37,177 nt of DNA. Source: Gemmatimonadota bacterium. GTDB lineage: Bacteria > Gemmatimonadota > Gemmatimonadetes > Gemmatimonadales > Gemmatimonadaceae. The notes under the pieces were generated by a model. It was not told where the DNA came from. It did no database searches and was given only the letters and a program-made list of their open reading frames with translations. A program made the translations under genes and the position numbers. The stretch is taken from NCBI GenBank assembly GCA_021324635.1, contig JAJPIS010000081.1:1-37177 (forward strand), given 5' to 3'. Below, one piece after another: positions 38 through 20,752 of this stretch (positions are counted from its first letter, which is position 1; each line of letters opens with the position of its first letter).

Positions 38-1390
38 TCACCGGTCCACCCCGCCGCGCAACCAGTCGAGCGGGTCGACGGCACGCCCCTGGTCTCGTCG
101 GATCTCGAAGTGCAGGTGCGCCGGGAGATCGGGATCGGTGCGGCCGACCGTCCCGATCGTCTCCCCGCGGTCCACGTGCGAGCCCTTCCGGACGTCGATC
201 CGTCCGAGGGACCCGTAGACCGAGTAGTCGCCGCCCCCGTGCTGGATGATCACCGTCGGCCCGTAGGTCCCGATCGGCTCGGCCACGACGACCGTGCCGC
301 TCTCGACCGCCCGGACGGGCGTCCCGGCCACGGCCCCGATGCCGATGCCGTTCCAGCGGACGGTCGTGTTGTTGGGGTTGACGACGCGGCCATACCGATA
401 GAGGATGGCACCCTCGACCGGCCAGTCGAGTCGCCCGAAGTCGCGGGTGCTGAGCGTGCTCGCGGCCGGGGTCCGCGCGCTCGAGCGGGCCGCCGCCCGC
501 CGCCGCGCGTCCTCGAGCGAGCCGATCACCGAACTCAGTCGAGCTTCCGCCAGGTCGATCTCGCGCAGCCGGGCCGCCGTGGCCTGCTGGCTGCGCTGCG
601 CACGGACGAGGCTCCGCTCGCGCTCGGTCGCGAGTGCGCGGAGGCGTCCTTCCTCCCCCGCTTTCTCTGCGCGGGTCTCCTTCACTTCACTCTCGAGGGT
701 GACGAGCACGCCCCGCTGCCGGCCGATCTGGTCGCGCAACTGCTCGACCCGGGCGACGAGCGCCTGATCCCGGAGCGCCAGCAGGTGCAGGTACTTGTAC
801 CGGGCAACGAGCGCGCCGAAGGAGTCGGCGGTCAACATCACCTCGACCGCGTACAGGGGCCCGCGCTTGTAGATGTCCACCAGTCGCCGGCGGAGCAGTG
901 CCCGCTTGATCGCCAGCTCGTCTTCGGCGCGGAGCAGGTTCCCGGTCGCGTCCCGTACCTCCGCGTCGATCGCCACCAGTTGCCCGTCGAGTGCGTGCAC
1001 GGCGCGCGCGGTGGTCGCGACCTGACGGTCGAGGTTCTCGACTTCGTCCGACAGGTCGTGCACGCTGCTCCGAAGCTCGGCCATGCGCTGCTCGAGCTGG
1101 GAGCGCTCGGCGCGGATACGCTCGAGCTCCGCCCGGTCGGCGCGGAGCCGCGCCTCCGGCGTCGGTGCCTCCTGCCCGTGCGCACGACCCGCGTCGCCGG
1201 ACGGGGGGAGCGACGTCGACGGAGCGCCCGGCTGCTGTGCGGCCAGCGGTGCGAGCGGCAGCGTCAGCGCCGGTCCGAGGAGACACCCCATGAGCTGCAC
1301 CGCCAGGCGCAGCCTCCGGCACACCGTCCGGCACACCGCCGGGCGCACCACCAATCGTCGCCCCGGGCGCGTGGCGAGCCGGCGGCGCAC
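38..1390 (-). CDS. envC: EnvC-like murein hydrolase activator (degenerate LytM/M23)
   Basis: The 450-residue protein is probably periplasmic and activates cell-wall amidases at the division site. It begins with an Arg-rich stretch and a hydrophobic signal segment ending near LAPLAAQQ (about residues 34-53). A long coiled coil follows (about 75-300), then a C-terminal LytM/M23 domain (about 321-445). Catalytic M23 enzymes carry H-x3-D in the first zinc motif; here it reads WNGIGIGA, so the His is replaced by Asn at about 347 and the Asp is lost, although HLH (425-427) remains. E. coli EnvC is degenerate at the same place, so an activator is more likely than an enzyme. The start is GTG, 2 nt after the ftsX stop; an ATG at 1291 just before the hydrophobic core is an alternative. 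FtsE and FtsX lie directly upstream, matching the known FtsEX-EnvC complex. Confidence 0.88.
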   Translation of the reverse strand: MRRRLATRPGRRLVVRPAVCRTVCRRLRLAVQLMGCLLGPALTLPLAPLAAQQPGAPSTSLPPSGDAGRAHGQEAPTPEARLRADRAELERIRAERSQLEQRMAELRSSVHDLSDEVENLDRQVATTARAVHALDGQLVAIDAEVRDATGNLLRAEDELAIKRALLRRRLVDIYKRGPLYAVEVMLTADSFGALVARYKYLHLLALRDQALVARVEQLRDQIGRQRGVLVTLESEVKETRAEKAGEEGRLRALATERERSLVRAQRSQQATAARLREIDLAEARLSSVIGSLEDARRRAAARSSARTPAASTLSTRDFGRLDWPVEGAILYRYGRVVNPNNTTVRWNGIGIGAVAGTPVRAVESGTVVVAEPIGTYGPTVIIQHGGGDYSVYGSLGRIDVRKGSHVDRGETIGTVGRTDPDLPAHLHFEIRRDQGRAVDPLDWLRGGVDR

Positions 1391-1392
1391 CC

Positions 1393-2244
1393 TCAGACGC
1401 GACGGAGGTGACGGCTGACCGAGACGGCGCTCCCGACGAGACCGATCGCCGCGCCGCCCAGGACGCCGAGCGCCGCGACGCCCGGGGCGAAGAACGCCGT
1501 CGGGAACCCGAGTGCCTGGTCGATCAGGGCGCTCGCGATCCAGGTCAGCAGCAGCGCGAGAAACCCGCCCAGGATGCCCTTCGTGAACCCTTCGATCAGG
1601 AACGGCAGTCGCACGAACGCGTCGGTCGCGCCGACCAGGCGCATGATCGCGATCTCGCGTTCCCGCGCCAGCACGGCCATGCGGATGGTCGTGCCGATGA
1701 TGATCGTCGCCACGGCCGCAAAGGCGACGCCCAGGACTAGCCCGACGATCGTCGCGATCGTGCGGAGCTGGTAGAGCTTCGTGACCCAGTCCTCGCCGTA
1801 TCGGACGTCATCGACGAACGTGTAGCTCGCGACCCGGCCGGCGACCGCCTTGACGGTCCGCGGATCCCGAAAGTCGGGCTTGAGCCGGATGTCGATCGAT
1901 CCCGGGAGCACGCCCGGCTCGAAGACATCGGCGAATTCGCCGAGCTCGCGGCGCGCGCGGGTGAGCGCCGAGTCGGGCGAGACGTAGTCGACGTGCGCGA
2001 CCTCGGGGAAGGCGGCGATATCGCCCATGGCGGCGGCGACGGCCTCGACCGGTGTCGCGTCGGCGATGAAGGCGCGGATCTCCACCCGCTCCTCGACCCG
2101 CCGGAGCGCGTCGCGGATGTTGACCGCGACGAGTCCGAACAGGCCGCAGGCGAAGAGCGAAAAGGCGATCGTCACCACGCCCAGCGCACTGAGGAGCGGC
2201 GCCCGCCGCACGGCCAGGAGCACCTCCCGCAGGGCCAGCTTCAT
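1393..2244 (-). CDS. ftsX: Cell division ABC-type permease FtsX
   Basis: The 283-residue membrane protein has the FtsX layout. One N-terminal transmembrane helix (about residues 17-40) is followed by an extracytoplasmic domain (about 45-160) and three C-terminal helices (about 163-190, 215-240, 250-275). FtsX passes conformational change from the FtsE ATPase to a periplasmic hydrolase activator, here presumably the EnvC-like protein encoded next. Its ATG overlaps the ftsE stop as ATGA at 2241-2244, so translation is likely coupled. The length is close to the usual 290-350 residues. Confidence 0.93.
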   Translation of the reverse strand: MKLALREVLLAVRRAPLLSALGVVTIAFSLFACGLFGLVAVNIRDALRRVEERVEIRAFIADATPVEAVAAAMGDIAAFPEVAHVDYVSPDSALTRARRELGEFADVFEPGVLPGSIDIRLKPDFRDPRTVKAVAGRVASYTFVDDVRYGEDWVTKLYQLRTIATIVGLVLGVAFAAVATIIIGTTIRMAVLAREREIAIMRLVGATDAFVRLPFLIEGFTKGILGGFLALLLTWIASALIDQALGFPTAFFAPGVAALGVLGGAAIGLVGSAVSVSRHLRRV

Positions 2245-2963
2245 GGCGTCACGGTCTCGGCCTCGGCGCGGCGGGCCGCCTCGCGCTCGGCGACCGACGG
2301 GTCGGCGCTGTCGGCCACGATCCGACCGTGCAACATCTCGATCGTACGATAGTCCGACCGGCGCATCAGCTCGAGGTTGTGGGTCGCCATGACGACCGCC
2401 GTCCCGGCCGCGTTGATCTCCCGCAGGAGCTGGAACACCCCCCGCGTCGCCCGGTCGTCCAGGTTGCCCGTCGGCTCGTCGGCCACCAGGACGAACGGGT
2501 CGTTGACGAGGGCGCGCGCGATCGCCACCCGCTGCTGCTCGCCCCCCGAGAGCTCCCGCGGATAGGCCTGCGCCTTGGACGCCAACCCCACCTGGGTGAG
2601 CAGCCGATTGACCTTGCCCGGGATCGCGGCCGTCGGCGCGCCCGTCACCTCGAGCGCGAAGGCGACGTTGGCGTGCGCGGTGCGATCGTCGAGCAGCCGG
2701 AAGTCCTGGAACACCACGCCGAGCTTCCGGCGCACCCGTGCCACGTCGCCACGGCGCAGGCTCGCCGAGTTCGCCCCGCTGACCCGCACCTCGCCGGCAC
2801 TCGGCCGCTCTTCCATGAAGACGAGCTTGAGGAGCGTGCTCTTGCCGGACCCGCTGGGACCGGTCAGGAAGACGAACTCGCCCTTGGCCACGTGGAGCGA
2901 GACATCGTCGAGCACGCGCCCGGTCCGCGGGTACACCTTGGAGACGTGCGTCAACCGGATCAT
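2241..2963 (-). CDS. ftsE: Cell division ATP-binding protein FtsE
   Basis: The 240-residue cytoplasmic ABC ATPase has Walker [10 protein letters not shown] (about 36-44), the signature [15 protein letters not shown] (about 137-151) and Walker [13 protein letters not shown] just after it, with the switch His in MATHN. FtsE drives FtsX and so controls amidase activation at the septum. The frame stays open upstream inside the PLP-enzyme gene, but the family begins at [12 protein letters not shown]. The ATG at 2961-2963 overlaps the upstream stop as ATGA, which fixes the start. The N-terminal extension encoded further upstream is an artefact of GC-rich sequence. Confidence 0.95.
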
Positions 2964-4183
2964 CGCAGCGCCCGCTCCAGATCGGCGATCAGGTCGTCGG
3001 CATCCTCGATCCCGACACTCAGGCGGAGGAACCCGTCGGGCACACCGAGGGCGGCGCGCTCCTCGGGTGACATCTCCGCGTGCGACGTGTAGCGCGGTTC
3101 GCTCACGAGCGAGTCCACCCCGCCGAGGCTGGGCGCGTGCAGCCAGAGCGAGACCCGGCGGACGAACCGGTCCGCCGCCTTCCCCCCGCCGGCCAGCTCG
3201 ATCGCGAGCATGCCGCCGAAGCCGTCGAGCTGCGTGGCCGCGATCGCGTGGTCGGGGTGCGTCTCGAGCCCGGGGTAGTGCACGCGCCGGATCTCGGAGC
3301 GCCCCGCCGCCCACTCGGCGATGCGCATCGCGCTCTCGTTCTGGCGCCGCACCCGCACATCCAGCGTCTTGAGCCCCCGCTCCAGCAACCAGCAGGCGAA
3401 CGGGTCGGGCGCCTGCCCCCACACGGTCATCTTCTCCCGCACTTCCTCGATGTAGGGGGCCGTGCCGACGACCGCGCCACCCAGCGTATCATGATGGCCG
3501 TTGAGGAACTTGGTCGTGGACTGGATCACGACGTCCGCGCCGTGCTCGAGCGGCCGGAAGTTGATCGGCGAGGCGAACGTGGAGTCGACGACGAGCGCCA
3601 GCCCCGCCTCCTTGGTCAGCAGCGTCACCGGTGTGAGATCCAGCACCCGGCAGGTCGGATTGACCGGCGACTCGACGAAGATGGCGCGCGTCTCCCGCCG
3701 CAACCGGCGCCGCCACCCGCGGTGCTCGGTCGGGTCGACGAGGGTCACGTCGATCCCCATGCTCGCGAACTCCTGCGTCAGGAGCCGATGCGTGCCCCCG
3801 TAGAGCCACGCGCTCGCGAGCAGATGATCCCCGGGACGGAGCAGCGCGAGCAGCGCGCACGCCGTTGCGCCCATCCCGCTCCCCAGCACCAGCGCCGCCT
3901 CGCCTCCCTCGAGCTGGGCGAGCCGGCGCTGCACGATCTCGGCGTTGGGGCCGGTCCCGTAGCGCGGGTACCGGAGTCCCTCGGCCGTCCCGAAGGCCTG
4001 AATGTGATTGACCGACTGGTAGATCGGCGTGACCACCGGCGCATCGGTCTCACGCCCCGCGCGCGGCCGATCGGTCCCTCCGTGGACGGCGATCGTCGAC
4101 CGCCCGGGCGAGGGAGCCGCGGTGGGAGGGGATGGCGGGGCGGAGGAGAGGTGCGGAGAGTGCGAGCGCGTCGCGCGGGGCAT
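2960..4183 (-). CDS. Transsulfuration PLP enzyme (cystathionine gamma-synthase/lyase family)
   Basis: The 407-residue protein belongs to the Cys/Met-metabolism PLP family, which makes or cleaves cystathionine, or handles homocysteine and methionine. Visible motifs are YPRYGTGPN (phosphate/tetramer contact, about 72-80), GSGMGAT (101-107), the cofactor-binding VVDSTFASP (Asp200) and the Schiff-base lysine in QSTTKFLNGHHD (Lys225). The C-terminus contains SLGGVDSLVSEP and RLSVGIED, both family hallmarks. The first 25 residues are Ser/Pro-rich and unlike the family, so the true start may be further in; no strong Shine-Dalgarno precedes the ATG. Sequence alone does not separate MetB, CGL, MGL or MetZ. 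It sits directly upstream of ftsE with an ATGA overlap, although no functional link is known. Confidence 0.9.
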   Translation of the reverse strand: MPRATRSHSPHLSSAPPSPPTAAPSPGRSTIAVHGGTDRPRAGRETDAPVVTPIYQSVNHIQAFGTAEGLRYPRYGTGPNAEIVQRRLAQLEGGEAALVLGSGMGATACALLALLRPGDHLLASAWLYGGTHRLLTQEFASMGIDVTLVDPTEHRGWRRRLRRETRAIFVESPVNPTCRVLDLTPVTLLTKEAGLALVVDSTFASPINFRPLEHGADVVIQSTTKFLNGHHDTLGGAVVGTAPYIEEVREKMTVWGQAPDPFACWLLERGLKTLDVRVRRQNESAMRIAEWAAGRSEIRRVHYPGLETHPDHAIAATQLDGFGGMLAIELAGGGKAADRFVRRVSLWLHAPSLGGVDSLVSEPRYTSHAEMSPEERAALGVPDGFLRLSVGIEDADDLIADLERALR

Positions 4184-4207
4184 GACGGTGAGGGTGGACG
4201 GGCGAGG

Positions 4208-4507
4208 TCAGCTCAACGAGCGTCGCGGCTCGCTCGGCTCGAGCTTACGCACCCGCACCACTTCGGACGGCGCGACGCCCGCGACGTCACGGACGACGGC
4301 GGCCCCCCGCGGGAGGGCGTCATCGACGTGCAGGACCGCAAACTCCTGCCGCCGCGGCCCTTCGATGCGGACGAGGTCGCCATCCCGCAACAGGCGCCGC
4401 TCGGCCTCGTCCTGCCGCATCCGGACCTCGGGCCCACGGTCCGGGTCGCCGCGCCGGGTCGCCACGAACCCGACCACCCGGAGCGGCGGACTGTACTCCT
4501 CAGGCAC
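4208..4507 (-). CDS. Small 99-residue protein of unknown function
   Basis: I do not recognise this protein with confidence. It has a short N-terminal segment (MPEEYSPPLRVVGF) and a basic/acidic middle. A beta-rich stretch from LLRDGDLVRIEG through AVLHVDDALPRGAAVV to VRVRK loosely recalls a small double-psi barrel of the molybdopterin-dinucleotide-binding type, but that is a guess. The start is GTG, preceded by a clear Shine-Dalgarno (GGAGGCGAGG immediately 5' of the start), which supports a real gene. It lies 33 nt after the STAS-winged-helix gene and 24 nt before the PLP-enzyme gene, so it is part of the same run. Other frames in this interval read as Arg/Ser-rich noise. Confidence 0.65.
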   Translation of the reverse strand: MPEEYSPPLRVVGFVATRRGDPDRGPEVRMRQDEAERRLLRDGDLVRIEGPRRQEFAVLHVDDALPRGAAVVRDVAGVAPSEVVRVRKLEPSEPRRSLS

Positions 4508-4540
4508 CCTCGCCTCCGTCGACCGTTCCCCGCCGGCGGA

Positions 4541-5104
4541 TCACGGGGCGTGCCCGAGCGTGTCCCCGAGGGTGACATACTGGCGGTCGAGCCGCATCAG
4601 GAGCCGCCGCTCCGTCAGCCCGTCGAGCAGCCGCTCGGCGGCCGGCGGGTCCGCCCCCAGCGACTCGGCGATCGTCGCCGCGTCGGCCCCGCCCAGCCGG
4701 CAGACGGCGTCCCACGCGCGCTGCTCGTCGTCGCCGACCTCACCCACCAGGTGATGCCCGTCGGGGCGCTCGAGGACGAGCGCCAGCCCGTACCGCGCCA
4801 ACGCCGCCTCGATCGCGTCGAGGTGTCCATCGCGCATCCCGCGGAACACGAAGTACGCGTCCGCCGGCGGCGTCCCGGTCGAGTAGCGCAGCAACAGCTT
4901 GGCGACGACCTCGTCGGCACAGGAGTAGTCGAGCAGCCCCACATGGGTGAAGTCGATCACCGTCAGCGTCGGCTCGGACGAGCCGGCCAGGAGCTGCTCG
5001 ATCTCCGTCCGCACGGCCGCCCCGGTCGACCGCGTGACGAGGTTCGAGTAGAGCTCGCAAACCGTGCGGCGCAGCACCGTGCTCAGATCGATGTGACGGA
5101 TCAC
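4541..5104 (-). CDS. STAS-like (DUF4325-type) domain protein with C-terminal winged helix
   Basis: The 187-residue soluble protein has an N-terminal STAS-like half (about 1-110), with strand VIDFTHVGLLDY followed by SCADEVVAKLLLRY. It has a C-terminal half resembling a winged-helix domain (about 125-183: AWDAVCRLGGADAATIAESL... LLDGLTERRLLMRL). By eye Ser61 falls where SpoIIAA-type anti-anti-sigma factors carry the phosphorylated serine. The start is GTG, overlapping the upstream STAS-ATPase stop as GTGA (5101-5104), so the two are probably made together. A partner-switch role, with the ATPase phosphorylating or binding this protein, is an inference. The winged helix could bind DNA or protein. 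Confidence 0.72.
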   Translation of the reverse strand: MIRHIDLSTVLRRTVCELYSNLVTRSTGAAVRTEIEQLLAGSSEPTLTVIDFTHVGLLDYSCADEVVAKLLLRYSTGTPPADAYFVFRGMRDGHLDAIEAALARYGLALVLERPDGHHLVGEVGDDEQRAWDAVCRLGGADAATIAESLGADPPAAERLLDGLTERRLLMRLDRQYVTLGDTLGHAP

Positions 5105-6018
5105 GCGCCCGTTCCCCCGGTCTCACCCGTGGCGCCGGCGACTCGCTCGGGGATCGTGATCTGCACCTGCGAGCCGGGGAAGGGCGCCAGCCCCTCGCGG
5201 AGCGGCACGTCGTCGTCCCACGATGGGACGATGGCGATCCGCGCCGTCCCGCTCCGGACGGACAGCTTCCCGGCCCACTTCCCCAGGAAATTGCGCGCGC
5301 CAGCGAGTCCCTGCCCGCGCCCCCGGTCCCGGAACCGGCTGACGCCGCGGATCACCGCCTCCTCCAGCGCCATCCCGTCGTCCCAGCGGTCGGTCGCCAC
5401 CCGGCCCGGCGTGCTCTCGAGCGAACGCCGGAAGCCGATCCCCGCATCGCACACGGCGATCTGGACGACGCGGCGCCCGCCCAGCCGATGCCGCCATCGA
5501 TAGGTCTGCACGGCGACCCAGCCGCCGCGCCCCGCATGCTCCACCACGTTCTGACACACCTCCGACAATGTCATGATGAACCGCACCGAGACCTGCGCGT
5601 CGATGTTCAGCTCACGCGCGAGGATGTGCTGCGCGCGCTGCTGGATCCGGTCGACGACGTCGTGCACGTCGCCGCTCTTGGCGACCGCCGTGATCTCGAG
5701 CAAGACGTTCGACTCGGTCGCCGGCCGCGTCCGCGGCAGGGAGCCGTGAATGTCGTACAGCTCCTCGGCGAACTGGAAGAAGCCCGTCCGCGACCAGTAG
5801 GAGCCCGTCTCCTCGGCCTCCGGCGGCGTCAGGGCGGGGCGCGTCTCGCGCGTCTGCGCGAGCGTGAGGAGCGCGATCAATCCGTAGGGGGACGCCCAGC
5901 GCGCGTGTCGGGCGTCGACGAGGATCTTGTCGTCGGGAGCGAGCGTGGCGACCCGGTCGAGCACCTGCTCGAACGAGACGTCGTCGAGCGACGGTGGCAC
6001 GGTAATGACGGTGGTCAC
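5101..6018 (-). CDS. STAS-HATPase fusion, anti-sigma/partner-switch type kinase-like protein
   Basis: The 305-residue soluble protein starts with a STAS-like segment (about 1-60, ILVDARHARWASPYGLIALL; Ser43 sits at the phospho-acceptor position of the fold). It continues into a GHKL ATPase domain (about 140-290). The ATPase motifs are the N-box LSEVCQNVVEH (Glu153, Asn157), the G1 box DAGIGF (191-196) and the G2 box GRGQGLAG (233-240). No His phospho-acceptor or transmembrane segment is seen, so it resembles RsbW/SpoIIAB-type serine kinases more than a sensor histidine kinase. The start is GTG in a GTGA overlap with the PfkB gene. The next gene, also overlapping, encodes a second STAS protein, the likely partner. 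Confidence 0.78.
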   Translation of the reverse strand: MTTVITVPPSLDDVSFEQVLDRVATLAPDDKILVDARHARWASPYGLIALLTLAQTRETRPALTPPEAEETGSYWSRTGFFQFAEELYDIHGSLPRTRPATESNVLLEITAVAKSGDVHDVVDRIQQRAQHILARELNIDAQVSVRFIMTLSEVCQNVVEHAGRGGWVAVQTYRWRHRLGGRRVVQIAVCDAGIGFRRSLESTPGRVATDRWDDGMALEEAVIRGVSRFRDRGRGQGLAGARNFLGKWAGKLSVRSGTARIAIVPSWDDDVPLREGLAPFPGSQVQITIPERVAGATGETGGTGA

Positions 6019-7034
6019 CGGGGGCTCAGCTCTCCGCGCAGATGGTGGGCGAGCCCGGTCGCACCCCGGTGCCCGACGTTGCGGGCCGCGGCTACGACCG
6101 CCGCCCGCAACGCCTCGGCTAACTTATCACCCACGAGCAGCCGAGAGAAATAGGTCGCGCCCCAGACGTCGCCACATCCGGTGGGATCGCCCGCGTCGCC
6201 AGGACGGACGGGCGCCGGTGCGGCGGGCACGAGTGCCGTGCGCACCGGGCCGGCGCTGCCCGTGAGACCGCGAGCCAGGGCGCCGGGTCCGCTGCCCGCC
6301 AGTCCGTCGAACCCGGCGCAGGCGAAATAGACCACGCCGCGGCTGCCGAGCGTGACGCTGAGGCAGCGGACCCCGGCGCCCAGCGCCGTCGCCGCGAGCC
6401 CCATGGCATCGGGGGCGAGGAGCGCCATCTCGTCCTCGTTCACCTGGAGGAGATCCGCGCACCGGCACCAGTCGGCGGCGGCCGCGAGCGGCTGCGGTGT
6501 GCGGAGGCCGTTCGGCTGGGTCGCGAGCAGCAGCGAGTGCAGGTCGCAGTAGATCGGCCCGCGGAAGTGCTGCCGCAGCAACTGCATCGTCGGCAGGTCG
6601 AGCTCCGTGCCGCTGATGAAATTCACGTAGAGCGCGTCGAGGTCGCGGAGCAGCGGGACGAGGCCGAGCCAGGTCCAGCCCGGGACGCCGCCGGTCAGCA
6701 CTTCGCTGCGGCGCTCGGCGCTCCGGTAGCGCAGCTCGACCCGGTTGTTGGGGCTCGCCACTTCGACCAGCGCGCCGTCCGGGGCCACTCGCTTGAGCGT
6801 CCGCAGGTATTCGCGCGCGCGAGGGGCGAGGTCGGCGCCGACCTTCATCACGGGCACGACTTCCCAGCAGTCGTCGAGCGCGGCGTCGAAGGCGCTCAGG
6901 GCGTAGGTGATCCCGCCCCACTCTTCGACCGGCCCCGCGCGTGGGTCGCGCCCGTAGATGACGTCCCAGACGAACGTCCCGATCACGCCGAGGCGCCGGC
7001 GCCGCTCAGGCGACACGATCCCCGTCGACCCCAC
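6015..7034 (-). CDS. PfkB-family carbohydrate/nucleoside kinase
   Basis: The 339-residue cytoplasmic kinase has the ribokinase/PfkB fold. It has a Gly-rich N-terminal motif (VEEWGGITYALSAF, about 36-49), a central CLSVTLGSRGVVYF and the C-terminal signature GDPTGCGDVWGATYF, whose second Asp is the catalytic base. Substrate specificity cannot be read from the sequence; ribokinase-, adenosine-kinase- and fructokinase-like members all share these motifs. The start is GTG and overlaps the ROK gene by 29 nt; a GTG at 7016 would shorten the overlap to 11 nt. It is followed by the STAS-ATPase gene with a 4-nt overlap. The Cys in DPTGCGD, usually Ala, is mildly unusual. Confidence 0.85.
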   Translation of the reverse strand: MGSTGIVSPERRRRLGVIGTFVWDVIYGRDPRAGPVEEWGGITYALSAFDAALDDCWEVVPVMKVGADLAPRAREYLRTLKRVAPDGALVEVASPNNRVELRYRSAERRSEVLTGGVPGWTWLGLVPLLRDLDALYVNFISGTELDLPTMQLLRQHFRGPIYCDLHSLLLATQPNGLRTPQPLAAAADWCRCADLLQVNEDEMALLAPDAMGLAATALGAGVRCLSVTLGSRGVVYFACAGFDGLAGSGPGALARGLTGSAGPVRTALVPAAPAPVRPGDAGDPTGCGDVWGATYFSRLLVGDKLAEALRAAVVAAARNVGHRGATGLAHHLRGELSPR

Positions 7035-8025
7035 CCATCACCTGCATCTTGAAGGTGGCGACCGCACCCACGACACCGGCCGATCCGGCGAGCGCGCCCG
7101 GCACGATCCGGCACGCCTCGACCGCCGGGCGGAACGCGCGCCGCCGCACCTCGCCCCGCAACGGCTCGAGCAACGCGTCACCGGCGTCGGTCACCCCGCC
7201 GGCGAGCACCACGACGTCGGGGTTGAAGATGTTGAGCAGGTTGGCGATCCCGGTCCCCAGGAAGCGCGCCGTGTCGCGCACGACCTCGCGCGCGACGAGG
7301 TCGCCGCGGGTCGACGCTTCATAGACCGTCCGCGCCGTGATCCGATCCAGGTCACCGCCCACCAGCTCCCGGAGCAGGGATGCCTCACCGTCGGCGAGCG
7401 CCTCGCGCGCGCGCTCGGCGATCGCCGGCCCGGAGGCGTACGCTTCGAGACATCCATAGTTGCCGCACTTGCAGCGCCGCCCCGTCGAGTCGATCGTCGT
7501 GTGCCCGATCTCGCCCGCGACGTCGGACGCCCCGTGGTAGAGTGTGCCGTCGAGGATGAGACCGCCGCCGATGCCGGTGCCGATCGTCACCCCCACCACG
7601 TTGCGGCCCCCCCGTGCGGCTCCGCACCACCACTCGCCGACGGTCGCGCAGTTGGCGTCGTTGTCGAGCGTCGCCGGGAGCTGGACGCGCGACGACACTT
7701 CATCGCGGAGCGGAAAGTCGCGCCACCCGAGATTGGGGGTCACGATCACGATCCCACGCTCCCGGTCGAGCGGCCCCGGCGCACCGATCCCGACGCCGAC
7801 GAAGTCGGCGCGGCTCGCGCCGGTCTCGGCGGCCGTCAGCTCCATCACTTCCTCGATCATCCCGGCGATCCGGTCGACCACCCGGTCCGCCCCCAGCTCG
7901 GCCCGCGTCGGCTGCGACCGAACGGCATGGTCGCGACTCCCGTCGACCGGCATCACGCCGGCGACGATGTTCGTCCCGCCAAGGTCGACGCCGACGATGT
8001 ACCGCTGCTTCCTCTTTGGTGCCAT
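7006..8025 (-). CDS. ROK-family sugar kinase (glucokinase-like)
   Basis: The 339-residue kinase carries the ROK signatures. The ATP-phosphate motif is VGVDLGGTNIVAGV (about 10-23). DNDANCATVGEWW contains the catalytic Asp. GTGIGGGLILDG is the second phosphate motif. GEIGHTTI has the substrate/zinc His, followed by the zinc cluster CKCGNYGCLEAYASG. Such enzymes phosphorylate glucose or a related hexose in the cytosol; the motif set is that of bacterial glucokinases of this class. The start is ATG, 9 nt after the heptosyltransferase stop. No DNA-binding N-terminal domain is present, so this is a kinase rather than a ROK repressor. Confidence 0.92.
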   Translation of the reverse strand: MAPKRKQRYIVGVDLGGTNIVAGVMPVDGSRDHAVRSQPTRAELGADRVVDRIAGMIEEVMELTAAETGASRADFVGVGIGAPGPLDRERGIVIVTPNLGWRDFPLRDEVSSRVQLPATLDNDANCATVGEWWCGAARGGRNVVGVTIGTGIGGGLILDGTLYHGASDVAGEIGHTTIDSTGRRCKCGNYGCLEAYASGPAIAERAREALADGEASLLRELVGGDLDRITARTVYEASTRGDLVAREVVRDTARFLGTGIANLLNIFNPDVVVLAGGVTDAGDALLEPLRGEVRRRAFRPAVEACRIVPGALAGSAGVVGAVATFKMQVMGGVDGDRVA

Positions 8026-8034
8026 CCGATCCTC

Positions 8035-9129
8035 TCAGCGCGCGGCGGGAGTGCGGGCGAGGTCGCGGGCGAGACCGGCCACCTCGCCCGCCGTGAGGTC
8101 GCGCATGCACCGCCAGTGCCCGAGCGGGCAGCGCATCGGTCCATGCCGGTCGCACGGCCGGCAGGGGAGGGTCGCGACCCCGGCGGTCGCATGGTGGGGA
8201 GCGAGTGGCCCGAACCCGAACGCCGGGACCGTCGGGCCGAAGAGCGTGACCGTCGGCGTCCCCATCGCCGAGGCCAGGTGCTGGGGCGCCGAGTCGTTGG
8301 TGACCACGACCGTACAGCGGCCGATCAGCTCCGCCGTCGCGAGCAGCGACAGGGCGCCGGTGGCGTCGATCGTCGCTCCGCCGCCCGCGGCGCGGATCGC
8401 CTGGGCCGCCGCGCGGTCCGTCGCGTCCCCCACGACCACGATCCGCTGTCCGTCCGCTGCCAGCAGCGCCGCGAGGTCCGGGAAATACGGCCACCGCTTG
8501 GTGCGCCATGCGCTCCCGGGCGCGAGCGCCAGGAGCGGCGCCCCGTCGTGGCCCGCGTCGCGGAGGAGCGCGTCGACCGCCTCGACATCGGCCGGGCCGG
8601 GATAGAGCCGCGGTCGGAGTGCCTCCGGCGGGACGGGCTGGTCGCCGCCAGGCTCGTCGGCCACCGGATCCGCCCTCCCCTGCGGCTCGGCACCGAGCCG
8701 CCAGAGTCGCGCCGCGTGGTGCTCCTCCTCGCGGTAACGGACCGTCCGCGTGTACAGCGCGCGGCCTGCCGATCGGTCGAACCCCACCCGCTCGCGGTAG
8801 CCCGCGAGCAGGGCCAGCGTCGCGCTTCGGAGGGACCCCTGGGCGAGGTAGGCGATGCGTCGGCCCGCCTCGGCCGACGCCCGCCGATCGCGGGCCGCCC
8901 GTGCGCGCAGGCGGCGCGCCGTGCGCCAGAGGCCTCCGACCCCGCTCGCCGCGCCGCGCTTGTCGTAGACCAGCACCTCGCGCACGGCGGGATGCGACAT
9001 GAGGAGCGGGGCGGCGGCCCGCGTCGTCACCACGTCCACGGGGCCACGCTCGGCGAGCCTGGCGAGCAGGGGGGTCGTCAGGATGACATCGCCCAGGTAG
9101 CTCGTCTGGACGACCAGCGAGGCCGCCAT
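8035..9129 (-). CDS. Glycosyltransferase family 9, ADP-heptose:LPS heptosyltransferase-like
   Basis: The 364-residue protein has the GT9 (GT-B fold) layout. It starts SLVVQTSYLGDVILTTPLL, has LALAPGSAWRTKRWP in the middle, and ends with the nucleotide-sugar site VVTNDSAPQHLASAMGTPTV followed by LFGPT and FGFGP. A Cys-rich tail (CRPCDRHGPMRCPLGHWRC) matches heptosyltransferase II (WaaF-type) proteins. It should act at the cytoplasmic face of the inner membrane in LPS core assembly, implying a diderm envelope. The frame is open further upstream inside lepA, but the ATG at 9129, 17 nt after the lepA stop, begins the conserved N-terminus. The exact sugar donor is not certain. Confidence 0.88.
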   Translation of the reverse strand: MAASLVVQTSYLGDVILTTPLLARLAERGPVDVVTTRAAAPLLMSHPAVREVLVYDKRGAASGVGGLWRTARRLRARAARDRRASAEAGRRIAYLAQGSLRSATLALLAGYRERVGFDRSAGRALYTRTVRYREEEHHAARLWRLGAEPQGRADPVADEPGGDQPVPPEALRPRLYPGPADVEAVDALLRDAGHDGAPLLALAPGSAWRTKRWPYFPDLAALLAADGQRIVVVGDATDRAAAQAIRAAGGGATIDATGALSLLATAELIGRCTVVVTNDSAPQHLASAMGTPTVTLFGPTVPAFGFGPLAPHHATAGVATLPCRPCDRHGPMRCPLGHWRCMRDLTAGEVAGLARDLARTPAAR

Positions 9130-9146
9130 CGGCGTCAGCCCGCCGG

Positions 9147-10946
9147 TCAGTCGACTTGCAGGACGGCGAGAAACGCCTCCTGCGGGATCTCGACCGTGCC
9201 GACCTGCTTCATCCGCCGCTTCCCCGCCTTCTGTTTCTCCAGGAGCTTGCGCTTGCGCGTGATGTCGCCGCCGTAGCACTTGGCCAGGACGTTCTTCCGG
9301 AGTGGACGGACGGTCGTGCGGGCGATGACCTTGGTGCCGATCGCCGCCTGAATCACCACCTCGAACAGCTGCCGCGGGATGAGGTCCTTGAGCTTGTCGG
9401 CGATCTTGCGGCCCGACTCGTACGCCTTGTCCCGGTGGATGATCACCGAGAAGGCGTCGACCGGATCGCCGTTGATCACCATGTCGAGCTTCACCAGCTC
9501 GCTCGCGCGGTACTCGAGCATCTCGTAGTCGAGGCTCGCGTACCCGCGGCTGATGGTCTTCAGGCGATCGTAGAAGTCGAGGATGATCTCCGCCAGCGGG
9601 AACTCGAAATCGAACTCCACCCGCTGCGTGTCGACGTAGCTCATGTTCTTGTAGACGCCGCGCCGCTCGCCCGCGAGCGCCATGATCGCCCCGATGTACT
9701 CGGCGGGGGCGACGATGCGCGCCTTGACGAACGGCTCCTCGACCCGGTCGACCTCCGAGCCGTGTGGCATGCGCGAAGGATTCTCGAGCAGCATCACCGT
9801 TCCGTCCTGGCGATACACCATGTACTCGACGTTGGGAACCGTCGTGACGAGGTCGAGGTCGAACTCGCGCTCCAGCCGCTCCTGCACGATCTCCATGTGC
9901 AGCAGGCCGAGGAATCCCGCCCGGAAGCCGAACCCGAGCGCGGTCGATGTCTCCGGCTCGTAGTGGAGCGAGGCATCGTTGAGCTGGAGCTTCTCGAGCG
10001 CGTCGCGCAGATCCTCGTACTCGGCCGTGTCGGTGGGATAGAGGCCCGCGAAGACCATCGAGCGCACGTCCCGATACCCGGGCAGCGGCTCGGCCGCCGG
10101 CTGGTCGGCATCGAAGATGGTGTCGCCGACGCGCGTCTCCTGGACGCGCCGCACATTGGCGACGACGTAGCCGACCTCGCCCGGCCCGAGCGCGTCGGCC
10201 GGCACCTGGCGCAGCCGGTTGTAGCCGACCTCCGTCACCTCGTACCGGTCGCCGCCGGCCCCGAAGGTGATCTGGATCCCGCGCCGGATCGCGCCATCGA
10301 CGACCCGGACCGACGGGATCGCGCCCCGGTAGCGATCGTAGTACGAGTCGAAGATCAACGCCCGGAGCGGCCCCGCGGGATCACCCGTCGGCGGTGGCAC
10401 CCGCGCCACGATCCGCTCCAACAGCTCGGGCACGCCGATCCCTTCCTTGGCGCTCACGAGGAGGATCTCCTCGGGCGCGACGCCCAGGAGCTCGACGAGC
10501 TCCTGACGGCGGCGCGCCGGCTCGGCCCCGGGCAGATCGATCTTGTTGAGGATCGGGATGATCTCGAGCCCGGCGTCGAGGGCGAGGAACAGATTGGAGA
10601 GGGTCTGGGCCTGCACCCCCTGCGAAGCGTCGACGACCAGGATCGCCCCCTCACAGGCGGCCAACGATCGGGAGACCTCGTACGTGAAGTCGACGTGACC
10701 CGGCGTGTCGATCAGGTTCAGCTCGTACGTCTGCCCATCCCGCGCCGCGTAGCTCATCCGCACGGCGTTGAGCTTGATCGTGATGCCGCGCTCGCGCTCG
10801 AGATCGAGCGTGTCGAGCACCTGGTCCTTCATGTCGCGCTTCTCGATCGTGCCCGTGGCCTCGATCAGCCGATCGGCCAGGGTCGACTTCCCGTGGTCGA
10901 TGTGCGCGACGATGCAGAAATTTCTGATGTGGGCGAGCGGCGTCAC
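9147..10946 (-). CDS. lepA: Elongation factor 4 (LepA), translational GTPase
   Basis: The 599-residue GTPase has the full LepA architecture. The G domain shows AHIDHGKST (G1), RERGITI (G2), DTPGH (G3), NKID (G4) and SAKEG (G5). EF-Tu domain-II-like and EF-G domain-III/V-like regions follow ([16 protein letters not shown]). The LepA-specific C-terminal domain includes [20 protein letters not shown] and ends [20 protein letters not shown]. LepA acts on the ribosome during initiation/elongation under stress. The length equals the E. coli protein. The start is GTG (10944-10946), chosen because the family begins only a few residues before [14 protein letters not shown] and no ATG lies near. It is the first gene of an eleven-gene minus-strand run. 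Confidence 0.97.
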
Positions 10947-16900: not shown

Positions 16901-17264
16901 CATCTATCGCCGGCTGACGCGGGTCGCGGAGGCGGCCGAGGTCGACGCGCTCCAGGCCGAAGTTCGCGACCGCTTCGGGGTCCTGCCCCCCCCGGCCGAG
17001 GCGTTCTTCGCGCAGGCGGTCCTCCGGCTCGTCGGCGGGCTGCTGCGTGTCGAAGGGATCCTGGTGCGCGGGGGGGAAGCCCGTATTACCTTTCGCGCCG
17101 ACGCCGTGCCTCGGATGAAGAGCCTGTCGGCCGCGTTCCACGACGTCCAGTTCCAGATCGAAGTTCGCCGCTCGCAGCCGTTGTCCCTCAAGCTGATCCG
17201 CTTGGGTGGGACGGACATCATCGGCGGGTTGGTCACGGCGCTCCGGCACACCGCTGATGTCTGA
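13953..17264 (+). CDS. mfd: Transcription-repair coupling factor Mfd
   Basis: The 1103-residue protein removes stalled RNA polymerase at DNA lesions and recruits UvrA. The N-terminal UvrB-homology region (about 1-320) is followed by the CarD-like RNA polymerase-interacting domain (about 434-500, starting [19 protein letters not shown]). The RecG-like translocase has Walker [10 protein letters not shown] (about 590-600), DEEH box VIDEEHRFG (about 690), [13 protein letters not shown] and QLRGRVGRS. The C-terminal TRCF domain starts near [14 protein letters not shown]. The length is slightly short of the roughly 1150-residue norm. The start is GTG (13953-13955), 27 nt after the preceding gene. 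Its stop is overlapped by one possible start (17257) of the following gene. Confidence 0.96.
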
Positions 17265-17325
17265 GCTGATGTCCGACCCCGGCCCGCGGGTGTTCCGCTC
17301 TGCCGTTTCCCTCATCCAGTCTCCG

Positions 17326-18891
17326 ATGCCACGCACTGCCGTCGTCCTGGCCTGCACCGCCGTGACCGTCTTCGCTGCCGCCGAGGGGTGCAAGGGCTTC
17401 CGGGACGCGATGACCGCGCACGTCGACGTCGTCGCCCGCGCGGGCCCGCAAGAGCTCACGGTCACGCGACTCTCGACCCTCGTCGGCGGGTCCAAGCTGC
17501 CCCTCGACCGCGACTTCGTGCGGCAGCTCGCCGGCATCTGGGTCGACTACCAGTTGCTGGGGCACGCGGCGGCAGAGGGGGACTCGCTCAACGCGCCGGC
17601 CACGGTCGATTCCGCGCTCTGGGGTGTCATCACCAACGCGCGCGCCAAGAAGTGGTTCGACGAGGTGTCCAAGACGTGGGTCGGGGCCGACAGCCTCAAG
17701 TACCCGGAGTCGTACGCGAGCGGTGAGGTGCTCGCCGCGCGCCACATCCTGCTCGTGCCCCCGAACGGCGACACCAGCGCCGCCAAGATGGACTCGCTGC
17801 ACAAGCGGGCCGAGTCGCTACGCGCGCAGGCGACGCCCGCCAACTTCGCCTCGCTCGCCGAGAAGAACAGCCAGGATCCGGGCTCGGCGCGCCGCGGCGG
17901 AGACCTGGGCGTGTTCCAGCGGGGACAGATGGTCGCGCCGTTCGAGCAGGCTCTGCGCGGGCTCAAGCCGGGGGAGATCTCGCAGCCCGTGCGGACGCAG
18001 TTCGGCTGGCACATCATCTATCGCCCGACCTACGCCGAGGTGAAGGACCAGGTCGCGCGGGTCGCCGGCGCGAAGACGATGCAGGCGGCCGAGAGTGCCT
18101 ACATCGCCCACCTCGACGCCAGCTCGCACTACCACTACATCCCGTCGGCCACGTCGACCGTGCGGGCGGTCGCCAAGGATCCCGACGGCCACCGCGCCGA
18201 CCGGACACCGATCGCGACCTATAGCGGCGGCGACTTCACGGCGGCGCGCCTCGCGCGCTGGATGAGTCTCTTCCCGCCCAACATCCGGGCGCAGGTCCAG
18301 AGCGCGCCGGACAGCCAGTTGCCGACCTTCATCCGCAACGTCGTCCGGAACGAGCTGGTCGTCCATCAGGCCGACAGCGCCAAGGTGGTGCTCGACACGG
18401 CGCAGATGAATCAGCTCCGCCGGACATACGAGCAGTTGGTGACGACCGACTGGCAGCAGCTCGGGGTCGATCCCAAGATGCTCGCCGACAGCTCCAAGAC
18501 CGAGTCGGGACGCGATCGGCTCGCCGCCGCGCACGTCGAGGACTACCTCGACCACATGGTGTCGATGACCGCCCGCTACGTCGATGTTCCGCCGCCGCTC
18601 GACCAGGCGCTGCGCTCGAAGTACGAGGCGCAGATCAACGAGGCCGGGGTCGACCGGGCGTTGGCCCGGGCCTCCGACATTCGGAAGACGACCGACTCGA
18701 CGCGGGCGGCCAAGGCCCCGCCGTCGGCGGTCCCGCTCCCAGGGGCGACCCCGGGCCCCGCGTCGTCGAGCGGCCCGTCGAGCAGCCCGTCGAGCAGCCC
18801 GTCGAGCAGCCCGTCGGGCGCCGCCCCCGCGGCACCGTCCTCGGCGAGCCCGGCGGCCCCGACTGGCACCGCACCCAAGGGGAAACCGTAG
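17326..18891 (+). CDS. Parvulin-type peptidyl-prolyl isomerase, probable lipoprotein
   Basis: The 521-residue protein has a hydrophobic signal segment ([16 protein letters not shown]) ending in AAEGC, a plausible lipobox, so it is probably anchored in the periplasm. A parvulin domain spans about residues 130-235: AARHILLV, then [37 protein letters not shown] and [10 protein letters not shown]. The rest is helical without known motifs, ending in a Ser/Pro/Ala tail with a 12-bp tandem repeat. I chose the ATG at 17326 because it gives a clean signal peptide. ATG at 17257 would overlap the mfd stop and add 23 residues; neither has a good Shine-Dalgarno. It probably works with the SurA-like protein encoded 25 nt downstream in outer-membrane protein folding. 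Confidence 0.87.
18774..18816 (+). repeat. 12-bp tandem repeat in the parvulin lipoprotein tail
   Basis: The unit CCCGTCGAGCAG occurs three times in perfect tandem plus a partial fourth copy. It encodes a Pro-Ser-Ser-Ser pattern in the C-terminal tail. The 12-bp unit keeps the frame, so copy number can vary without breaking the protein. Confidence 0.9.
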
Positions 18892-18916
18892 ACCGATCGC
18901 GGGGTATGGCGACGTC

Positions 18917-20752
18917 ATGATGCGGACCCGCATCCATCAGCGACGCGGCCGGGCGCGCCCCGCCGGCCTCGCGCGGAGGCCCGTTGTCAGCTCGGCGGGC
19001 CCGGCCGCGGTCGCATCGGCTCGCGGGTCTGCGTGCGCGGTCGCCGGGTTGCTCGCGCTGGGACTGCTGGCGGGAGTCGCCGCCGGCGCGCACGCGCAGG
19101 GCACGGGCGGTGCCGGTGCCGGCCGCCCCCCTGCTGCGACGGCACCCTCTACAACGGCACCCCCGAGCACGGCACCCGCGACCACGGCGCCGGCGACCAC
19201 GGCGCCGGCGACCACGGCACCGGCGACCGCGGCGGGAGCTGCGCCCGCAGCGTCCCCCGCCCCCACGACGCTCCAGGTGTCGGCGGATACCGGCGGCGCG
19301 GCCCCGGGCGGTACCCCGCGCACGATCTCGGCGACTGCCGCCACCGCCGGCACGATCGCGGCCGACAGCGTCCCGTCGCTGGCCGCCAAGCCCCGCGCGC
19401 CGGCGGGCGGTGGCGCCGGGCCGGCCGGCGGGGCGAGTCCCGCCGCGGCCTCCGATCTTCCCACGACATCGGCGCTCTCGAACGCCTTCCCGAATGGCGC
19501 CTCGGTGCCGCTCGACCGGGTGGTGGCGGTCGTCGGGGACGAGCCGGTCCTCTGGAGCAGCGTGCTCGAGCGCGTGAACGTCGAGCGGGCGCAGGGCCGC
19601 GCCGTGCCGGCCGACTCGGCCGGCCAGATGGAGCTCGCGCGGCAGGTCGCGAACGAGTTGATCAACGAGGAGCTCCTGGTGCAGAAGGCGCAGGAGCTCA
19701 AGGTGGAGGTCAGCGACGACGACGTCGCCCCCGCGGTGGACGCGCAGCTCAAGCGTGTGCGCGCCAACTTCTCGAGCGAGGTCGAGTTCCGGAACGAGCT
19801 GAAGAAGGCCGGCTTCGCGAACCCCGAGGAGTATCGGAAGACGCTCATCGATCAGAACAAGCGCGCGGAGCTTCAGCGAAAGGTCATCCAGAAGCTCAAG
19901 GAGGATGGCAAGCTGATCCCCGTCGGCGTGAGCGAAGCCGACATCACGGCCGCCTTCAACGCCCACAAGGCCGAGCTGCCGCGGCGCCCCGCGACCGTGA
20001 CGTTCCGCCAGATCGTCGTGGCGCCCAAGCCGAGTGCGGCCAGCAAGGCGGCCGCCAAGGCCAAGGCGGACTCGATCCTCGCCGAGCTGCATCGGGTGGG
20101 CGGTGGCGCCGAGCAGTTCGCCCTCATCGCGAAGCGCGAGTCGATGGACCAGAGCACGCGCGAGCAGGGCGGCGACCTGGGATGGAACCGCCGTGGCAAC
20201 ATGGTGCCGGAGTTCGACCGCTGGATGTTCGCGCTGCCGCCCGGACAGTTGAGCCCCGTGATCGAGACGGTGTTCGGCTATCACATCATTCGCGTCGATC
20301 GCGTGAAGCCGTCCGAGGTCAAGGCGAGCCACATCCTGATCCGCTGGAAGATCGACACGGCCCAGGTGCTGGCCGCGAGGGCCGAGGCGGACAGCGTGCT
20401 CGCGAAGTGGAAGAGCGGCACGAACTTCGACACGCTCGTGCTTCACCACCACGACCCCAACGAGGAGAAGGGCAGCCTCCAGCCGTTCCCGCGGGACTCG
20501 CTGCCACCGTCCTATCAGGCGGCGTTCGCCGGGAAGAAGTCGGGAGACTTCGCCGGGCCGTTCGAGATCGCGGACCGGGGGAGCGGGCACGCGAAGTTCG
20601 TCGTCGCGCAGATCCTCGATGCGACCGACGGCGGTGACTACACCGTCGCCGACTGGCGTGACCGGCTCCGCGCGCAGTTGGCGGACGAGCGGGCGATCGC
20701 CCGCCTGCTCGATTCGCTGCGCAAAGAGACCTACGTCGCCCTCCGGATCTAG
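18917..20752 (+). CDS. surA: SurA-like periplasmic chaperone with two parvulin domains
   Basis: The 611-residue exported protein has an Arg-rich start, a hydrophobic signal core (AGLLALGLLAGVAAGAHAQ) and a roughly 110-residue Ala/Thr/Pro/Gly-rich linker. The SurA N-terminal helical domain begins near VPLDRVVAVVGDEPVLWSS (about 195-213). A first parvulin domain follows: VTFRQIVVAP, EQGGDLGWNRRGNMVPEFD, then FGYHIIRVDRV. A second, more degenerate one follows: VKASHILIRW, GSLQPFPRDSLP. SurA carries outer-membrane proteins across the periplasm. The long low-complexity linker is unusual for SurA. The start is ATG-ATG at 18917/18920; the upstream in-frame sequence lies inside the previous gene and is Arg-rich noise. 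pdxA follows 13 nt later, as surA and pdxA are also neighbours in enterobacteria. Confidence 0.87.
   Translation: MMRTRIHQRRGRARPAGLARRPVVSSAGPAAVASARGSACAVAGLLALGLLAGVAAGAHAQGTGGAGAGRPPAATAPSTTAPPSTAPATTAPATTAPATTAPATAAGAAPAASPAPTTLQVSADTGGAAPGGTPRTISATAATAGTIAADSVPSLAAKPRAPAGGGAGPAGGASPAAASDLPTTSALSNAFPNGASVPLDRVVAVVGDEPVLWSSVLERVNVERAQGRAVPADSAGQMELARQVANELINEELLVQKAQELKVEVSDDDVAPAVDAQLKRVRANFSSEVEFRNELKKAGFANPEEYRKTLIDQNKRAELQRKVIQKLKEDGKLIPVGVSEADITAAFNAHKAELPRRPATVTFRQIVVAPKPSAASKAAAKAKADSILAELHRVGGGAEQFALIAKRESMDQSTREQGGDLGWNRRGNMVPEFDRWMFALPPGQLSPVIETVFGYHIIRVDRVKPSEVKASHILIRWKIDTAQVLAARAEADSVLAKWKSGTNFDTLVLHHHDPNEEKGSLQPFPRDSLPPSYQAAFAGKKSGDFAGPFEIADRGSGHAKFVVAQILDATDGGDYTVADWRDRLRAQLADERAIARLLDSLRKETYVALRI
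19169..19228 (+). repeat. 15-bp tandem repeat in the SurA-like linker
   Basis: Four near-identical 15-bp copies of ACGGCGCCGGCGACC (ACGGCACC in the first and last) encode Thr-Ala-Pro-Ala-Thr units. This lies in the low-complexity linker between the signal peptide and the SurA N-domain. Confidence 0.9.

What the first reader, a model, noticed from the sequence alone, without database searches (positions are those of the whole stretch)
4541..6018. Overlapping STAS-ATPase and STAS-winged-helix genes: a possible unusual partner-switch module
Seen: the 305-residue protein joins a STAS-like segment (Ser43) to a GHKL ATPase (Glu153/Asn157, DAGIGF, GRGQGLAG). The next gene, overlapping by GTGA, encodes a STAS-like domain (Ser61) joined to a winged helix. 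Known: in SpoIIAA/SpoIIAB and RsbV/RsbW modules a GHKL kinase phosphorylates a serine in a separate STAS protein and controls a sigma factor. Inferred: here the kinase carries its own STAS domain, and the second STAS protein carries a DNA- or protein-binding module instead of pairing with a sigma factor. No sigma factor is encoded nearby.
Basis: partly seen in the sequence, partly recalled or inferred. Interest (0 to 1): 0.66.

Follow-up and report, generated by a model that had tools for sequence, protein, structure and literature searches.

The report
Core STAS-ATPase and STAS-winged-helix gene pair
Two coupled genes, present in nearly every sampled genome of one class of soil and water bacteria (Gemmatimonadota), encode an ATP-binding switch protein and its partner that resemble a bacterial "partner switch" but lack the usual phosphorylation site and any nearby sigma factor, so what they switch is open and testable.

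Summary
Gene A (5101-6018, minus) encodes an N-terminal STAS fold fused to a GHKL ATPase whose closest solved fold is SpoIIAB; gene B (4541-5104, minus) encodes a STAS fold plus a winged helix. Both the PfkB-like/A and A/B junctions are 4-base GTGA overlaps. The pair is a single-copy core feature of a Gemmatimonadota class: A in 280/298 sampled genomes of the phylum, B beside it in nearly all. Ser43 of A sits at the Asp of the canonical "D-S*-S/T-G" site and is Asp, Asn or Thr elsewhere; the phosphosite itself is an invariant proline (58/58). Ser61 of B is invariant (58/58) but lies one residue after the canonical phosphosite. The winged helix is poorly conserved and truncated or absent in 19 genomes, so DNA binding cannot be the general output. 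Distant pairs occur on plasmids (Nostoc, Janibacter, Sphingobium) and in a Gordonia phage. The closest described system is SipA/sigma-SsdA of Actinoplanes. Most likely this is an ATP-dependent protein-binding switch in which A's ATPase binds B's STAS domain and A's own inert STAS acts in cis; phosphorylation chemistry and target are unproven.

The parts
5101..6018 (-). Gene A: 305 aa, N-terminal STAS fold fused to a SpoIIAB-like GHKL ATPase
   Evidence: orthologues
5740..6018 (-). A residues 1-93, STAS domain
   Evidence: VIA Z 9.8 to TM1442, Z 9.2 to 4hyl; STAS_2 weakly in 3 of 33 members
5887..5892 (-). A Ser43-Pro44: Ser43 at the Asp position, Pro44 at the phosphoserine position of canonical STAS
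   Evidence: sequence
5137..5715 (-). A residues 102-294, GHKL ATPase (E153, N157, D191-x-G193-x-G195, G235-x-G237)
   Evidence: SpoIIAB Z 14.0; 58/58 invariance
4541..5104 (-). Gene B: 187 aa, STAS-like domain plus winged helix
4742..5104 (-). B residues 1-121, STAS-like domain, motif-related to DUF4325
   Evidence: RsbS Z 9.6; profile match to the Janibacter DUF4325 protein
5009..5041 (-). B residues 22-32, conserved motif LVTRxTGxxVR
   Evidence: invariant T24, R25, T27, G28, R32
4910..4930 (-). B residues 59-65, motif D-[FY]-S-C-A-D-E with invariant Ser61
   Evidence: 58/58; 457 of 465 genome-wide pattern matches encode relatives
4553..4741 (-). B residues 122-184, winged helix, variable and sometimes truncated or absent
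5101..5104 (-). 4-base overlap of A stop and B start
   Evidence: same overlap in most orthologous loci
6015..7034 (-). PfkB-like carbohydrate kinase gene, overlapping A by GTGA (6015-6018)
   Evidence: Pfam PfkB E 4.2e-9; upstream of A in 69/69 loci

Best explanation
A and B form a dedicated two-protein switch of the partner-switching type. Shown by sequence and structure prediction: A is an ATP-binding GHKL protein of the SpoIIAB fold with its own STAS domain; B is a DUF4325-like STAS protein, usually with a winged helix; the two are encoded together and retained as a pair. Inferred: the GHKL domain of A binds the STAS domain of B, as SipA binds sigma-SsdA; the ATP state and A's own STAS domain, which cannot be phosphorylated at the usual site (invariant Pro44) and acts in cis, decide whether B is held or released. 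B's output goes mainly through its invariant STAS surface (LVTRxTG and DxSCADE); the winged helix is an accessory. Whether A also phosphorylates B at Ser61 is open.
For: SpoIIAB/RsbW/UsfX are the best structural matches of A, above histidine kinases (Z 14.0, 11.6, 11.5 versus about 9.5). All ATP-site residues named in the parts list are invariant in 58 sequences. B's STAS fold matches RsbS. The pair is single-copy and adjacent across at least eight families of the class. Very distant pairs keep both genes side by side on plasmids of three phyla and in a phage. In the described system SipA's GHKL domain was shown by two-hybrid to bind both its own STAS domain and that of its partner (PMC10733313).
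Against: No interaction, ATPase or kinase assay exists. No complex could be modelled here. B lacks the canonical phosphosite, so a strict SpoIIAA-type cycle is not supported. A neighbouring PfkB-like kinase is as tightly conserved as B, so the true functional unit may be larger. The order-specific linkage to ftsEX-envC could be hitchhiking.
Confidence: 0.5

Rival explanations
1. Classical partner switch: A is a serine kinase that phosphorylates B on Ser61, and an unlinked PP2C phosphatase reverses it.
For: A has the SpoIIAB fold and an intact ATP site; Ser61 is invariant, also in distant partners; PP2C proteins of the SpoIIE family exist elsewhere in the genome.
Against: Ser61 lies one residue after the canonical phosphoserine. 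The genome's strongest SpoIIE-type phosphatase sits beside its own canonical RsbV/RsbW pair, and none of the SpoIIE matches lies on the window's contig.
Confidence: 0.25
2. B is a DNA-binding repressor or activator and A is its ATP-dependent antagonist, so the pair controls transcription through the winged helix.
For: Winged helix predicted at high confidence (pLDDT above 90 in that region) with MarR-like matches; plasmid relatives have MarR-like helices with an N-R-L-K-R pattern; sigma-SsdA is a DNA-binding partner in the Actinoplanes pair.
Against: The winged-helix half is the least conserved part (mean entropy 2.42 bits against 1.37 for the STAS motif half), its mean net charge is -1.25, and it is truncated or missing in 19 genomes that keep the pair; the phage partner has none.
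Confidence: 0.15
3. The pair is a regulatory attachment of the PfkB-like kinase upstream: A-B senses or tunes a sugar or nucleoside phosphorylation step, rather than forming an independent switch.
For: PfkB overlaps A by GTGA in the window and is upstream of A in 69/69 loci and in 18 of 20 loci of other families of the class.
Against: No PfkB detected beside A in L138 and L153; plasmid and phage pairs have no PfkB annotated beside them.
Confidence: 0.1

Closest known systems
SipA / sigma-SsdA of Actinoplanes missouriensis (PMC10733313)
   Same: One protein with N-terminal STAS and C-terminal RsbW-like ATPase, and a partner in which a STAS domain is fused to a second module; locus tags AMIS_54230 and AMIS_54240 are consecutive.
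   Different: The Actinoplanes partner carries a sigma factor; here B carries a winged helix, is DUF4325-like, and no sigma factor is encoded nearby. Sequence homology with SipA could not be tested here.
SpoIIAB/SpoIIAA and RsbW/RsbV
   Same: GHKL fold of A closest to SpoIIAB; STAS folds in both proteins.
   Different: No sigma factor nearby; A carries its own STAS; the phosphoserine position is Pro in A and Phe/Tyr in most B.
GHKL plus DUF4325 (STAS-like domain of unknown function) gene pairs, e.g. on a Janibacter melonis plasmid
   Same: Same two-gene order, near full-length profile matches for both proteins, conserved xSFxDE/xSCADE motif and winged helix.
   Different: Found there on plasmids and a phage; here chromosomal, single-copy and nearly universal in a Gemmatimonadota class. 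B does not reach the Pfam DUF4325 cut-off.
Rv1364c of Mycobacterium tuberculosis (PMC10950880)
   Same: GHKL kinase and STAS domain in one polypeptide.
   Different: Also has PAS and PP2C domains and a phosphorylated Ser600 in its STAS domain; no STAS-winged-helix partner described there.

Membership tests
SpoIIAB/RsbW anti-sigma kinases (for A) | GHKL fold closest to SpoIIAB/RsbW | tested here: met
   Z 14.0 to 1til/1l0o, 11.6 to RsbW
SpoIIAB/RsbW anti-sigma kinases (for A) | ATP-site residues (N-box Glu/Asn, DxGxG, GxG) | tested here: met
   E153, N157, D191, G193, G195, G235, G237 in 58/58
SpoIIAB/RsbW anti-sigma kinases (for A) | serine kinase activity and sigma factor binding | not testable with these tools
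   no sigma factor on the contig; activity needs experiments
SpoIIAA/RsbV STAS antagonists (for B and for A's N-terminal domain) | STAS fold | tested here: met
SpoIIAA/RsbV STAS antagonists (for B and for A's N-terminal domain) | phosphoacceptor Ser/Thr directly after the conserved Asp | tested here: not met
   Pro44 in A 58/58; position 60 of B is F/Y in 52/58 and never S/T
DUF4325 (for B) | Pfam PF14213 gathering score | tested here: not met
   no match for B itself; only 5 of 33 orthologues at E up to 0.1, best 0.0086
DUF4325 (for B) | profile relationship to a protein that passes the cut-off | tested here: met
   hhalign probability 98.5% to the Janibacter/Nostoc/Sphingobium set over 149 columns
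SipA/sigma-SsdA pair | STAS-GHKL protein plus adjacent STAS-containing partner | tested here: met
   against the description in PMC10733313
SipA/sigma-SsdA pair | partner contains a sigma factor domain | tested here: not met
   B has a winged helix, no sigma domain match

The most novel reading that the evidence does not exclude
A phosphorylation-independent partner switch: a class-wide core regulator in which a GHKL ATPase with a locked, non-phosphorylatable STAS domain in cis controls a DUF4325-type STAS protein by ATP-dependent binding alone, feeding a PfkB-type kinase or the FtsEX-EnvC cell-envelope machinery instead of a sigma factor.
Probability: 0.2. Interest if true: 0.75.

Novelty: new variant of a known kind. 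Interest (0 to 1): 0.5.

Why it matters
The authors of the SipA/sigma-SsdA paper knew of no other proteins with those domain structures. Here the STAS-ATPase architecture with a STAS partner is a near-universal core gene pair of a whole bacterial class and also occurs on plasmids and in a phage. It gives the uncharacterised DUF4325 STAS-like domain an ATPase partner, an invariant motif to mutate, and a conserved gene context, so its function becomes directly testable.

Tried and rejected
Canonical phosphoserines at Ser43/Ser61: rejected by register. Histidine-kinase origin of A: weaker matches (about Z 9.5) than SpoIIAB. Defence-system membership: PADLOC gave only a DrmA match to the ATPase region (34 bits) and a weak CasR match to the winged helix, taken as shared domains. 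Direct sequence searches of the PDB gave nothing usable for A and only weak matches for B. The DUF4325 model found nothing in the own genome. A plasmid search with B, and repeat searches with the distant relatives, added no further pairs; phages with the Janibacter B gave none. Papers on DUF4325, on GHKL/STAS/winged-helix proteins, or on Gemmatimonadota partner switching: none found in the held library. hhalign probabilities between A's or B's STAS and the small canonical STAS set are low (28% and 4%), so the register rests also on the shared D-x7-D spacing, the predicted helix starts and the fold matches.

Full report
Observation. Both genes are at the stated coordinates on the minus strand. 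Gene A (305 aa) begins in the 4 bases GTGA that end a PfkB-like gene (6015-6018), and gene B (187 aa) begins in the 4 bases that end A (5101-5104). Pfam finds only HATPase families in A and weak winged-helix matches in B. Across 33 orthologues each, weak STAS_2 matches appear for A and weak STAS_2 and DUF4325 matches for B. AlphaFold2 models (mean pLDDT 85.7 for A, 95.4 for B) support the folds: A 102-294 is closest to SpoIIAB (Z 14.0), then RsbW and UsfX, ahead of histidine kinases; A 1-93 matches anti-sigma antagonists (Z 9.8, 9.2). B matches RsbS over its STAS part and MarR-type winged helices at its end.

Distribution. A is in 145/149 near relatives and in 280/298 genomes sampled across the phylum; the six sampled genomes of another class of the phylum lack it. 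B is in 145/149 relatives. The A-B overlap of four bases recurs in most loci. A scan of a collection of 84,980 species with the motif D[FYL]SCADE[VIF][VI] gave 465 matches, 457 of them relatives; the best 80 carry Gemmatimonadota names wherever a phylum is named. In those 80, among loci with enough flanking DNA, A is upstream of B in 74/74, PfkB in 69/69, and downstream FtsE is found in 68/68, FtsX in 63/63 and EnvC in 53/53. In twenty loci from other families of the class B follows A in all; in four loci of one family they are 0.5-1.3 kb apart with a cyclophilin-like reading frame between. FtsEX was not detected beside the pair there, while PfkB was in 18 of 20.

The serines. In canonical STAS antagonists the phosphoserine directly follows an Asp: SpoIIAA of 1th8 reads MDSSGLG and the 1til/1tid version reads MDASGLG, and the V. 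fischeri SypA S56A primer changes the residue right after the Asp. The own genome has a canonical set elsewhere (contig C34): an RsbV-like protein with YIDSSGLG, an RsbW-like protein and a SpoIIE-type phosphatase. Aligned to it, A reads W-A-S43-P44-Y-G and B reads L-L-D59-Y60-S61-C. In 58 sequences of each, Pro44 is invariant and position 43 is S 39, D 13, N 3, T 3; in B, D59, S61, C62, A63, D64 and E65 are invariant and position 60 is F or Y in 52. The predicted helix starts at 44 in A and 60 in B, as the register requires. So A's own STAS domain cannot be phosphorylated at that site. Ser61 matters but is displaced by one; its counterpart Ser57 of SypA is needed for full function without being the phosphosite (PMC10120452).

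The winged helix. Its region is the least conserved part of B (mean column entropy 2.42 against 1.37 for residues 20-75), with mean net charge -1.25 in 55 sequences; B is cut to about 143-152 aa in sixteen genomes and to 120 aa in three. DNA binding is therefore not the common output.

Relatives elsewhere. Distant A-like proteins covering both domains occur on plasmids of Nostoc, Phaeobacter and Bradyrhizobium. In Nostoc, Janibacter and Sphingobium a B-like protein with the STAS motif and a winged helix follows directly; Janibacter's passes the DUF4325 cut-off. Profile comparison gives 98.5% for B and 99.8% for A over most of their length. Gordonia phage Phishy has an A-like gp32 followed by a 75-aa gp33 with the SFADE motif and no winged helix.

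Mechanism and known systems. The nearest described system is SipA/sigma-SsdA: SipA has STAS then RsbW-like ATPase, its partner has a sigma factor then STAS, and the ATPase domain binds both STAS domains (PMC10733313). Rv1364c is another single protein with GHKL and STAS (PMC10950880). By analogy A most likely holds and releases B through GHKL-STAS contact under ATP control, with its own STAS as a cis element. Binding, kinase activity, the role of PfkB and any link to FtsEX-EnvC are inferred, not shown. No sigma-70 region 2 match lies on the 37-kb contig, although the genome has 30 elsewhere.

Noticed in passing
window 38-9279: Gene cluster GT9-ROK-PfkB-A-B-(99-aa ORF)-PLP enzyme-FtsE-FtsX-EnvC is kept in nearly the same order across three families of the order.
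   Followed up: partly
window 4208-4507: 99-aa ORF with weak similarity to molybdopterin dinucleotide-binding domains; detected next to B only in family f1, not in f2 or f3 loci.
   Followed up: partly
L158 5542-8134: A canonical RsbV/RsbW/PP2C set elsewhere in the same genome, without a sigma factor recognised among the neighbouring ORFs read.
   Followed up: partly
L265 2414-3553: Gordonia phage Phishy gp32 (annotated histidine kinase) and gp33 look like a minimal phage version of the pair, beside the integrase and immunity repressor.
   Followed up: partly
L165 2505-7747: On a Sphingobium plasmid the pair lies between a Xre/RES toxin-antitoxin-like pair and multiubiquitin/ThiF genes.
   Followed up: no
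window 17206-20752: Two consecutive PpiC/SurA-type peptidyl-prolyl isomerase genes.
   Followed up: no
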